This document shows, piece by piece, positions 272-4,185 of a stretch of DNA of 5,911 nucleotides. The stretch's first letter is position 1, and each line of letters opens with the position of its first letter. The stretch lies in the NCBI GenBank assembly GCA_030611945.1, contig JAUWOV010000093.1, positions 1 through 5,911 on the forward strand. The letters are read 5' to 3'. The notes under the pieces were generated by a model that had not been told where the DNA came from, did not search any database, and saw only the letters and a program-made list of their open reading frames with translations. The DNA is from a bacterium (GTDB lineage: Bacteria > JAHJDO01). The translations under genes were made by a program, and so were the position numbers.

Positions 272-886
272 ATATGGAGTAAAGCATATTTCAACTGGCT
301 TTCTGATATTTCTATGCCACATCCAGCACAGCAGATAACAATACAAGAATATATTGATACTGTCCATGATAGCAAAAAGCGTATGGAACGTTTTTCAGAA
401 CAAATAAGACAATTGTCGGGAGAAACACAATTGAATAATCTTAATAAGGCATTGCAATCATTGCGTAGGGTATCAGAAATTGTTTCTGCAGTTGTAGTGT
501 CAGAGCTCGGAGATATTACCCGCTTTGATTCTCCTGCAAATTTAATGGCATATCTGGGCCTTGTACCTTCACAACATAATAGCGGAGACAAAAAAAGACC
601 AGGGAATATCACTAAAACAGGAAACGGGCATGTTCGACGTGCTCTTATTGAAGCTGCTCAAGCATATAGACTGCCAGCCAGAAAAAGCCGGGCTATTGCA
701 AAACGCAATGAAGGTTTGCCTCAAGCAGTCTGCCAAATTGCCTGGAAAGCACAAGTAAGATTATGTGATCGTTATAAACGACTGGTATTTAGAGGTAAAA
801 ATGCAAACCTTGTAAAAACAGCTATTGCCAGAGAGTTGGCAGGTTTTATGTGGTCTATTGCTCATGCAATTCCGAAAACTGCATAA
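272..886 (+). pseudogene. IS110-family transposase, 5'-truncated remnant
   Basis: This is the C-terminal part of an IS110/IS116/IS902-type transposase (recombinase). The frame is open from 272. The 14 codons before the first ATG (314) already read like family sequence (WSKAYFNWL, then PAQQITIQEYID), so the break lies upstream of that ATG. Counted from ATG 314, residues 15-35 are the helical linker, 50-110 hold the Transposase_20 region (ELGDITRF, LMAYLGLVPS, GNITKTGN) and Ser90 of the NSG motif aligns with the family's conserved catalytic serine. The C-terminus ends in a typical helix before TAA at 884-886. Full-length members run about 320-400 residues. The N-terminal RuvC-like DEDD domain is absent, and no alternative frame in 1-271 restores it. 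A protein from ATG 314 could be made (190 aa) but should not transpose. Family call is confident; subgroup is not. Confidence 0.88.
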
Positions 887-980
887 AAAAATATAAGGAA
901 TCGCTTCGCTCTATCAATTTTATATGGATTTTTTAGGCATGAGGCAGGAAAGCTTAAATAATTAATAATGAACTGACGCT

Positions 981-1030
981 GAGAGAGGCGGCTAATACAC
1001 CAGCCTCTCTCTTAAGCATTATTTAATGCT
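981..1030. repeat. Two adjacent perfect hairpins
   Basis: GAGAGAGGC (981-989) is perfectly complementary to GCCTCTCTC (1003-1011) across a 13-base loop. Four bases later AGCATT (1015-1020) pairs with AATGCT (1025-1030) across a 4-base loop. Neither is followed by a T tract, so a rho-independent terminator is unlikely. They lie about 100 bases after the transposase stop and may belong to the structured end of the IS. Confidence 0.6.
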
Positions 1031-1036
1031 GCCTGC

Positions 1037-1094
1037 ATCCGATTATCCCTTGATAGGTTGCTTCCCAGCAGAGCCTACCTCCGTTTTGTCGGAT
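1037..1094. repeat. Two-tier hairpin with internal loops
   Basis: ATCCGA (1037-1042) pairs with TCGGAT (1089-1094). Inside, TAGG (1054-1057) pairs with CCTA (1074-1077) and TGCT (1059-1062) pairs with AGCA (1067-1070) around a TCCC loop. The result is a stem interrupted by internal loops. Each piece is short, so the fold is only suggestive. It could be part of an IS-encoded RNA. Confidence 0.4.
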
Positions 1095-1180
1095 ATTGAA
1101 TTATAACATTAGGTCGCATTAAAACCAAGAGAAGAATATTGAAAAACACAAGAGAGGTTAACAGGAAAGTATACACATAA

Positions 1181-1384
1181 TTTTTAAATTTTATTGCAGG
1201 GGCGCGGTCACGGTTGGAGAACCCCAGTAAACACTATGGGAATAGGTATCATTACTGAAACTCCCGATAATAGATAAGGGCAGCTCCACGACGAAGCCAA
1301 ATCATGCGGTAACCAATCCGCGTATATCAGATTGATCAACCGTCGTTACATGATGACCCCGTCCCTGACAATAAAATTTAAAAA
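1181..1384. repeat. 204-bp element bounded by a 30-bp inverted repeat
   Basis: The left arm (1181-1210) and right arm (1354-1384) are inverted copies. TTTTTAAATTTTATTG at 1181-1196 is perfectly complementary to 1369-1384. CAGGG (1197-1201) pairs with CCCTG (1363-1367) after one bulged A at 1368. The arms then continue through CG to GGTCA/TGACC (1206-1210 with 1354-1358), with mismatches only at 1202 (G:T wobble) and 1205. That is 28 of 30 positions, far beyond what base composition explains for the GC-rich half. The arms enclose a 143-base core that can itself fold. It could be the non-coding end of the neighbouring IS110 element, a MITE-like element, or a pre-existing hairpin that received an RNA-coding insert. 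No obvious target-site duplication flanks it. Confidence 0.75.
1206..1358 (+). ncRNA. Candidate structured RNA, possibly IS-linked guide RNA
   Basis: The core folds on paper into a closed multi-branch shape. GGTCA/TGACC (1206-1210 with 1354-1358) and CGGTTG/CAACCG (1211-1216 with 1337-1342) close it. Inside are a hairpin CCC-AGT (1223-1228) with ACT (1233-1235) and GGG (1238-1240), with a two-base bulge, and GCGG/CCGC (1306-1309 with 1318-1321). An alternative pairing of 1211-1217 with about 1313-1320 also exists. The core is clearly richer in GC than its surroundings. Position 3' of an IS110 transposase fits a bridge (seekRNA-type) RNA of the IS1111 subgroup. A HEARO/omega-RNA-like element is an alternative, because ATGATGA follows at 1350-1356. 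The strand is assumed from the transposase direction. No promoter was identified. Confidence 0.35.
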
Positions 1385-1446: not shown

Positions 1447-1460
1447 TTGACAAGTGTCAA
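1447..1460. repeat. Palindrome TTGACA-AG-TGTCAA, possible IS end
   Basis: TTGACA (1447-1452) and TGTCAA (1455-1460) are perfect inverted copies separated by AG, and are followed by CCATATCAG. TTGACA is also a consensus -35 hexamer, and outward-facing -35 boxes are common at IS ends. This is the most likely place for the right boundary of the IS110 debris, but without the left end it cannot be proved. It could instead be an operator. Confidence 0.35.
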
Positions 1461-1475
1461 CCATATCAGTGTTTT

Positions 1476-1511
1476 AGGCTGAAGTTCCTGACAGCCTTCG
1501 GACTTCAGCCT
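1476..1511 (+). terminator. Terminator-like hairpin
   Basis: AGGCTGAAGT (1476-1485) is perfectly complementary to ACTTCAGCCT (1502-1511). The stem extends by CC/GG past one bulged T, leaving a loop of about 11 bases. It is followed by TTT CCCC TT, a broken T tract. It would separate transcription of the IS region from the phoB operon. The interrupted T run lowers confidence that it acts as an intrinsic terminator. Confidence 0.45.
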
Positions 1512-1622
1512 TTTCCCCTTATAGGTCTTAATTTGTGTGATAGCGCATGATTTGTTCCTAAAAGCCTTCCGCCCTCAGTTTATCCACCTGAGTAGTTACA
1601 AATTTAGATACAAACAGTGTTC

Positions 1623-2398: not shown

Positions 2399-4185
2399 AA
2401 AAAAAGAAACGGCTGCTTTGGCAGTTATATCCTTCTTATCTTCTTATCACACTAATTTCACTTCTTGCTGTAGGCCTTTTTGCATCAAGTGCCTTTAGAG
2501 AATTTTTTCTTGACCGTACTGCCGCAGATCTCAAGTCAAGAGCACATCTATTGGAAAAACAGGTAGATAACTACATTGCACCTCTGGATGGAATGTCGGT
2601 TGATTCTATATGCAAGTCAGCCGGCAGGCAATCATCTACTCGAATTACAGTAATAATTTCTTCAGGGAAAGTTGTAGGTGATTCTGAAGAGGTGCCGGAA
2701 AATATGGACAACCATGCTAATCGTTTTGAAGTTTCAGAGGCTTTGCGGGGAGAGGTCGGTACATCTATAAGATACAGCAAAACACTTAAGCATGAAATGA
2801 TGTATGTCGCGATACCATTAAAGAGAAATAATAACATTTTAGGTGTATTACGTACTTCTATCCCAGTAACTTCAATATACGATGAGCTTCAGTCCATTCA
2901 AATTCAGATAGCATTTGGAGGGTTACTTATAGCTCTTTTTGCTGCCGGAGTCAGCTTATTTATTTCAAAACGTATAAGCAAACCAATAGAGGAGATTAAA
3001 AAAGGCGCTGAAAGATTTGCCCGCGGGGATTTAAATTATAGGATGCCGGCTGCAGATACAGAAGAAATGAGGGGCCTGGCTGAAGCAATGAGCCAGATGG
3101 CAATACAGCTTGATGTTAGGATAAAGACAGCAATAAAACAACGCAATGAGCTTGAAGCTGTCCTTTCAAGTATGAAGGAAGGTGTAATTGCAGTTGATTT
3201 GGACGAGAAAATAATCAGCATAAATCAGTCGGCAGATAGTATGTTTAAAAGCAGGACCTCAGACTTAGAACAGCGAAGCATTCAGGAGGTGATAAGAAAC
3301 CCTGAGCTGCAGAAAATTACCAAGAAAGCTATTTCAAGCGGTGAACATTCAGAAGGAGATATTGTGCTTTATCAGGGCGAAGAAAGCATTTTGAATGTCC
3401 GGACAACTTCTCTTCTTGACGAGAATGAAAAATTTATAGGCATAATTGTTGTATTGAACGATGTGACCCAGCTAAGGCATCTGGAAACTATGCGGAAAGA
3501 ATTTGTATCCAATGTTTCGCATGAAATCAAAACACCTCTGACAGCAATAAAAGGCTTTGTTGAGACTTTAAGTCAAGGGGCAATGGAAAATCCGGGCGAA
3601 GCTAAGCGTTTTTTGAATATTATCGAAAAACATGTAAATCGCCTGGTTGCTTTAATAGAAGATCTTATGCGCCTTTCAGTAATTGAGCAAAAAGACAAAA
3701 TTGAAGACATAACGTTAGAAAAAGGGCATATCAGGAGCGTTATTAAAACTGCTATTCAGGTCTGCCAGGCAAAAGCAGAAGCAAAGAGTATAAAGGTTGG
3801 TCTGATATGTAATGAAGATATTTCAGCCAGAATAGATCCTCCACTTCTTGAACAGGCTGCAGTAAATCTTCTTGATAACGCAATAAAATATAGTGAAGAA
3901 GAGGGCTTGGTTCAGATTGAGGTAATTACCAAAGATACTGAGGTTTGTATAAGTTTTAAGGATTATGGAATCGGAATTCCAAAAGAACATCTTCCCCGTC
4001 TTTTTGAAAGATTCTATAGGGTAGACAAAGCCAGAAGCCGTAAGCTCGGGGGCACGGGGCTGGGCCTTGCCATTGTTAAACATATTGTACAGACTCATGG
4101 AGGCTATGTTACAGTTGAGAGCGAGCCTGGAGAAGGAAGCAATTTTGTTATTCACCTGCCTAAAATCTCCACTTTATCTCATTGA
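2395..4185 (+). CDS. phoR: PhoR-type membrane sensor histidine kinase
   Basis: Sensor kinase that autophosphorylates on histidine and passes the phosphate to the upstream regulator; 596 residues. Order of parts: short basic N-terminus; membrane helix about 10-32; extracytoplasmic domain about 33-168; second membrane helix about 170-190; HAMP about 191-243; PAS about 252-360 (EGVIAVDLDEKIISIN); HisKA with H-box SHEIKTPL, phospho-acceptor His376; HATPase_c with N-box NLLDNAIKY (Asn495), G1 box DYGIGIP (Asp523), F-box FERFYR (537-542) and G2 box GGTGLGLAI (552-560). All catalytic motifs are intact. ATG 2395 overlaps the regulator's TGA (ATGA), pointing to translational coupling. E. coli PhoR is shorter (about 430 aa) and lacks a large outer domain. 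This long form, with an outer domain plus HAMP and PAS, is common in deltaproteobacteria and resembles Gram-positive PhoR/WalK. Ligand specificity cannot be read from the sequence. Confidence 0.85.
   Translation: MKKKKRLLWQLYPSYLLITLISLLAVGLFASSAFREFFLDRTAADLKSRAHLLEKQVDNYIAPLDGMSVDSICKSAGRQSSTRITVIISSGKVVGDSEEVPENMDNHANRFEVSEALRGEVGTSIRYSKTLKHEMMYVAIPLKRNNNILGVLRTSIPVTSIYDELQSIQIQIAFGGLLIALFAAGVSLFISKRISKPIEEIKKGAERFARGDLNYRMPAADTEEMRGLAEAMSQMAIQLDVRIKTAIKQRNELEAVLSSMKEGVIAVDLDEKIISINQSADSMFKSRTSDLEQRSIQEVIRNPELQKITKKAISSGEHSEGDIVLYQGEESILNVRTTSLLDENEKFIGIIVVLNDVTQLRHLETMRKEFVSNVSHEIKTPLTAIKGFVETLSQGAMENPGEAKRFLNIIEKHVNRLVALIEDLMRLSVIEQKDKIEDITLEKGHIRSVIKTAIQVCQAKAEAKSIKVGLICNEDISARIDPPLLEQAAVNLLDNAIKYSEEEGLVQIEVITKDTEVCISFKDYGIGIPKEHLPRLFERFYRVDKARSRKLGGTGLGLAIVKHIVQTHGGYVTVESEPGEGSNFVIHLPKISTLSH

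What the first reader, a model, noticed from the sequence alone, without database searches (positions are those of the whole stretch)
1181..1384. Long inverted repeat enclosing a foldable 143-base core
A 30-base inverted repeat (28 matches, one bulge) closes a GC-richer core with its own pairings. Nothing coding explains it. An arm this long that stays paired through both an AT-rich and a GC-rich half points to a selected structure or a mobile element with terminal repeats. It may be an undescribed MITE-like element or RNA.
Basis: seen in the sequence. Interest (0 to 1): 0.6.

Follow-up and report, generated by a model that had tools for sequence, protein, structure and literature searches.

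The report
Bridge RNA of a broken IS1111-like element
The long hairpin is the guide ("bridge" or "seek") RNA of a decayed insertion sequence of the IS110/IS1111 family; the same structure lies behind transposase genes in many bacteria, and it still carries a seven-base match to the DNA site where this copy sits, so it is a good new example of a known system.

Summary
The inverted repeat is real (1181-1210 with 1354-1384, 28 of 31 aligned positions, 16/16 in the outer half), noncoding, and folds far better than shuffles (z -6.8). It is not a MITE terminal repeat. It is the closing helix of a ~204-nt bridge RNA/seekRNA of an IS1111-type (IS110 family) insertion sequence. The C-terminal half of the matching transposase lies upstream (275-886, PF02371). 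About 20 other loci carry the same RNA, mostly 20-75 nt downstream of IS110-family transposases. Across 21 RNAs, 19 of 21 closing-helix pairs change on both sides while staying paired. The element's right end is at 1467. The RNA's first internal loop (AAACACT, 1229-1235) is the exact complement of the right target flank (AGTGTTT, 1468-1474); its second loop (ATATCAG) repeats the right end. Guide-target matching holds across 15 elements (0 of 20,000 permutations reach it). This copy is dead in cis: the catalytic N-terminal half is missing, no DEDD domain was found in the assembly, and an antisense fragment resembling another IS110 noncoding region sits between transposase and RNA. Mechanism and family are established (bridge RNA and seekRNA papers, 2024). 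New member of a known kind.

The parts
275..886 (+). C-terminal remnant of an IS110-family (IS1111-like) transposase; the N-terminal catalytic half is missing
   Evidence: PF02371 E 1.3e-21; aligns to residues 166-361 of the intact 368-aa transposase of L037 at 60% identity, window 275-862 in one frame, and 1-274 has no transposase similarity
905..1130 (-). Foreign stretch between the transposase stop and the RNA, resembling on the minus strand the noncoding region of a different IS110-family element (boundaries approximate)
   Evidence: Relatives have only about 20-75 nt here; minus-strand landmarks shared with Acidisarcina pACPOL3 downstream of its IS110 transposase, 84% over 45 nt plus a collinear CATGCCT..AAATCCAT box
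1181..1384 (+). Bridge RNA / seekRNA
   Evidence: Same fold downstream of IS110-family transposases in about 20 loci; covariation
1181..1210 (+). 5' arm of closing helix P1
1354..1384 (+). 3' arm of closing helix P1
1229..1235 (+). Target-loop guide AAACACT, 5' side of first internal loop; complement of right target flank 1468-1474
   Evidence: 0 of 20,000 permutations over 15 elements
1266..1273 (+). Target-loop 3' side GATAATAG, expected to match the left flank plus left end (left flank lost here)
   Evidence: Position equals the segment that matches left flank/left end in relatives (B: 3 of 20,000 permutations); the reading in this copy is inference
1306..1321 (+). Invariant hairpin GCGG/CCGC of the second half of the RNA
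   Evidence: 21 of 21 sequences
1324..1330 (+). Donor-loop segment ATATCAG, identical to the element's right end plus first flank bases (1463-1469)
   Evidence: D: 2 of 20,000 permutations
1447..1467 (+). Right end of the element: TTGACA (likely -35 box of the junction promoter), putative subterminal repeat GTGTCAACCAT (1454-1464), 3-bp extension ATC
   Evidence: Aligned with L037 and with right ends of relatives whose subterminal repeats are found on both sides; left partner missing in the window
1468..1474 (+). Right target flank AGTGTTT

Best explanation
The hairpin is the bridge RNA (seekRNA) of an IS1111-type element of the IS110 family. The long inverted repeat is its closing helix. The first internal loop reads the target DNA: its 5' side pairs with the right flank on the top strand, and its 3' side matches the left flank plus left end, thus pairing with the bottom strand. 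The second loop reads the element's own right end. In an intact element the DEDD transposase would bind this RNA and join target and donor at the matched sites. Shown here: homology, position downstream of the transposase, covarying structure, guide-target and guide-donor matches. Inferred from published work: binding to the transposase and the recombination chemistry. This copy has lost the transposase's catalytic half and its left end, so it cannot move on its own.
For: Homologues downstream of IS110-family transposases: L016 26 nt, L027 35, L026 57, L032 26, L006 20 and L037 73 nt after the stop. L037 has both a 57-60% identical transposase and a 75% identical RNA. Covariation: closing helix 21 pairs, 19 with two-sided changes, whole structure 92.9% of cells paired against 71.3% shuffled and at most 50.3% slid, covariation score 0.584 against 0.203, 0 of 500. 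Each RNA's own arms pair; the window's arms with arms of others do not (-12.7 kcal/mol own, cross mean -2.4). Relatives have subterminal inverted repeats of 9-12 bp. Target guide: own matches exceed all 20,000 permutations, with 7 nt in the window, 8 in L037, 9 in L026. The order top-strand match first, bottom-strand match second is the IS1111 order (PMC11187229).
Against: No transcript data. Left end and left flank are missing in the window, so the left subterminal repeat and left guide cannot be tested there. Transposase and RNA are separated by about 295 nt instead of 20-75, explained by a foreign stretch whose ends are approximate. The 21 sequences are related, and the MAFFT alignment misplaces the outer closing-helix pairs of the window row. 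Several elements in the guide test show only short matches.
Confidence: 0.95

Rival explanations
1. MITE-like element: a ~204-bp non-autonomous element whose terminal inverted repeats are the two arms.
For: Long near-perfect arms, noncoding core, intergenic position.
Against: Single copy in the genome. In relatives the arms have quite different sequences but still pair with each other, which terminal repeats of one element would not do. The element's end is at 1467, outside the arms. Transposase remnant of the same family upstream.
Confidence: 0.02
2. A host RNA (riboswitch, leader or terminator-like element) of the downstream phoB/phoR-like operon.
For: Lies about 300 nt upstream of a response regulator gene on the same strand.
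Against: Homologues sit behind transposases in unrelated contexts and phyla; no Rfam match; no match to the RNA in the four congeneric genomes.
Confidence: 0.01
3. The RNA is kept in this genome for a use other than transposition, or used in trans by a transposase elsewhere.
For: Closing helix and the 7-nt guide match are intact although the transposase is truncated.
Against: No DEDD_Tnp_IS110 domain in the 91%-complete assembly; recent decay explains intactness equally well.
Confidence: 0.04

Closest known systems
seekRNA of IS1111-family elements (ISEc11, ISPa11, ISKpn4; PMC11187229)
   Same: Downstream of the transposase gene; structured; top-strand target match precedes bottom-strand match; subterminal repeats with asymmetric 7-bp/3-bp extensions in relatives
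   Different: Hairpin of about 204 nt with a very long closing helix (long seekRNAs there 145-170 nt, peak 70-100 nt); this copy is a remnant
Bridge RNA of IS110-family elements (IS621 and others; PMC11208160)
   Same: Two internal loops, one reading target and one reading donor, next to a DEDD recombinase gene
   Different: IS621-type bridge RNA lies upstream of the gene in the left end; here it is in the right end as in the IS1111 group

Membership tests
IS1111 group of the IS110 family | DEDD transposase with C-terminal Transposase_20 domain and a GL-P----S(T)G motif | tested here: met
   PF02371 in the window fragment with GLVPSQHNSG; the catalytic N-terminal half is lost in the window but present in L037
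IS1111 group of the IS110 family | Longer noncoding region downstream of the transposase gene | tested here: met
IS1111 group of the IS110 family | Subterminal inverted repeats with 7-bp left and 3-bp right extensions | tested here: inconclusive
   Found in most relatives examined (9-12 bp, e.g. ATGTTCGCC/GGCGAACAT, ATGTATTGACCT); in L037 the repeat is 8 bp (ATGATTGA); in the window only the right half can be read because the left end is missing
Bridge RNA / seekRNA | RNA segment complementary to the insertion target | tested here: met
   AAACACT against right flank AGTGTTT; 15-element permutation test 0 of 20,000
Bridge RNA / seekRNA | RNA segment matching the element's own end (donor) | tested here: met
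   ATATCAG equals 1463-1469; permutation 2 of 20,000
Bridge RNA / seekRNA | Transcribed and bound by the cognate transposase | not testable with these tools
   No expression or binding data
MITE | Terminal inverted repeats at both ends, several copies, target duplication | tested here: not met
   One copy; arms are an internal RNA helix

The most novel reading that the evidence does not exclude
Bridge RNAs outlive their transposases as solo RNA units. This locus holds one intact-looking bridge RNA next to a dead transposase, plus an antisense noncoding region of a second IS110-type element without its transposase. Such solo units might be mobilised or used in trans.
Probability: 0.05. Interest if true: 0.55.

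Novelty: new member of a known kind. Interest (0 to 1): 0.25.

Why it matters
Bridge RNAs are RNA guides for programmable DNA recombination. This set of about 20 related RNAs, with ends, target flanks and covarying structure worked out from sequence alone, adds a subgroup with a very long closing helix and gives a readable target rule. Rfam, as searched here, did not recognise the window's RNA, so copies like it pass as anonymous hairpins.

Tried and rejected
Rfam at gathering and relaxed thresholds: nothing credible. Phage collection: no match. First guess at the right end of L037 (GCCTTCCTT repeat, 3880-3888) was dropped when the family right end (TTGAC..CAT + 3 nt) placed it at the ATGATTGA repeat instead, and the guide then matched its right flank. 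Search for further copies of the right end, and for uninterrupted copies of the predicted target GATAATAGTGTTTAC, in the own genome: none beyond chance. Empty site in congeneric genomes: not found, because the neighbourhood is not conserved. Viral and metagenome scans and structure prediction were not needed.

Full report
Observation. The inverted repeat exists as described: 1181-1196/1369-1384 is 16/16 complementary and 1181-1210/1354-1384 pairs at 28 of 31 aligned positions. The stretch folds at -71.4 kcal/mol, z -6.8 against dinucleotide shuffles, and no ORF of 60 aa or more covers it. Rfam recognises nothing.

What lies around it. Upstream, 314-886 is the C-terminal half of an IS110-family transposase (PF02371). 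Similarity to the intact 368-aa transposase of a Desulfobacterales MAG (L037) covers residues 166-361, window 275-862, in one frame; the first 274 bases of the contig show no transposase similarity. The protein fragment differs from its nearest relative (L044) mostly at silent sites (dN 0.09, dS 0.54 over 86 codons), so most of their divergence arose under selection for protein function and the decay is probably recent (inference). Downstream are a response regulator and a histidine kinase (PhoB/PhoR-like), then a metallo-beta-lactamase-fold protein.

Homologues. blastn of the hairpin finds the same core in about 90 plasmid records, and in L006, L037 and L043 outside plasmids. Transposase-like sequence lies within a few hundred bases upstream in nearly all the loci fetched from these hits; where the gene is annotated it is an IS110-family transposase ending 26-57 nt before the hairpin. 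By ORF search the distance is 20 nt in L006 and 73 nt in L037. L037 carries both a related transposase and a 75% identical RNA. Two exceptions: L028 shows only the conserved 44-nt core with no closing helix, and L008 is a weak partial match without a transposase nearby.

Structure. 21 RNAs were aligned. The consensus has a long closing helix, two inner helices closing a first loop, and an invariant GCGG/CCGC hairpin in the second half. On 37 pairs, 92.9% of cells are paired (shuffled 71.3%, best slid version 50.3%), 163 cells carry two-sided changes (shuffled 49.8) and the covariation score is 0.584 (0.203 shuffled), none of 500 shuffles reaching it. The closing helix has 19 of 21 pairs with two-sided changes. 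Independently of the alignment, each RNA's own 18-nt arms pair strongly while exchanged arms as a rule do not; the window's arms give -12.7 kcal/mol with each other and -2.4 on average with others. Caveats: sequences are related, and MAFFT misplaces the outer arm of the window row, so the arm-swap test is the better evidence for the AT-rich half.

Ends. Most relatives carry subterminal inverted repeats of 9-12 bp with a 7-bp left extension, the IS1111 signature (PMC11187229). Their right ends read TTGAC/TTGAA, then the repeat ending in CAT, then 3 bp. The window has TTGACAAGTGTCAACCATATC ending at 1467, and L037 has ATTGACAACTTTCAATCATATC at the matching place, with the left partner ATGATTGA present in L037. 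TTGACA is likely the -35 half of the promoter formed in the circular intermediate (inference from PMC11187229). The window's left end is missing.

Guides. With these ends, the 5' side of the first internal loop is complementary to the first bases of the right target flank: AAACACT against AGTGTTT (1468-1474) in the window, TGAAACCT in L037, GAAACATCT in L026. Over 15 elements no permutation of RNAs and flanks in 20,000 did as well. The 3' side of the loop matches left flank plus left end (3 of 20,000) and the second loop matches the right end (2 of 20,000). The loop regions were chosen after inspecting the first matches, so the permutation counts are somewhat flattering; the window's and L037's ends were set by alignment to the family right end. 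Some elements (L034, L043, L006, L025) show weak matches, possibly because their ends were set a few bases off. The order is that of IS1111 seekRNAs, top-strand match first (PMC11187229).

State of this copy. The catalytic half of the transposase and the left end are gone; no PF01548 domain was found in the assembly. Between transposase stop and RNA lie about 220 extra bases which, read on the minus strand, share landmarks with the noncoding region behind a different IS110 transposase of Acidisarcina. This copy is therefore dead in cis.

Conclusion. The finding is the bridge RNA/seekRNA of a decayed IS1111-type element: a real, selected RNA, but a new member of a known kind rather than an undescribed MITE or RNA class.

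Noticed in passing
window 905-1130, minus strand: Looks like the noncoding region (probable bridge RNA) of a second, different IS110-family element lying antisense between transposase remnant and RNA, without its own transposase; shares GGCTCTGCTGGGAAGCAACC and CATGCCT..AAATCCAT boxes with Acidisarcina pACPOL3.
   Followed up: partly
L026, L030, L032: Two inverted copies of these IS110-family elements flank an IS481 or IS5 transposase gene symmetrically, as if they target the terminal repeats of other insertion sequences.
   Followed up: partly
L044 2911-3335: A 78% identical transposase fragment in another Desulfobacterales MAG also lacks its N-terminal half and carries a frameshift, another decayed copy.
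   Followed up: partly
window 1475-1520: Hairpin GGCTGAAGT...ACTTCAGCC followed by TTTT directly right of the insertion site; probably an intrinsic terminator next to the target.
   Followed up: no
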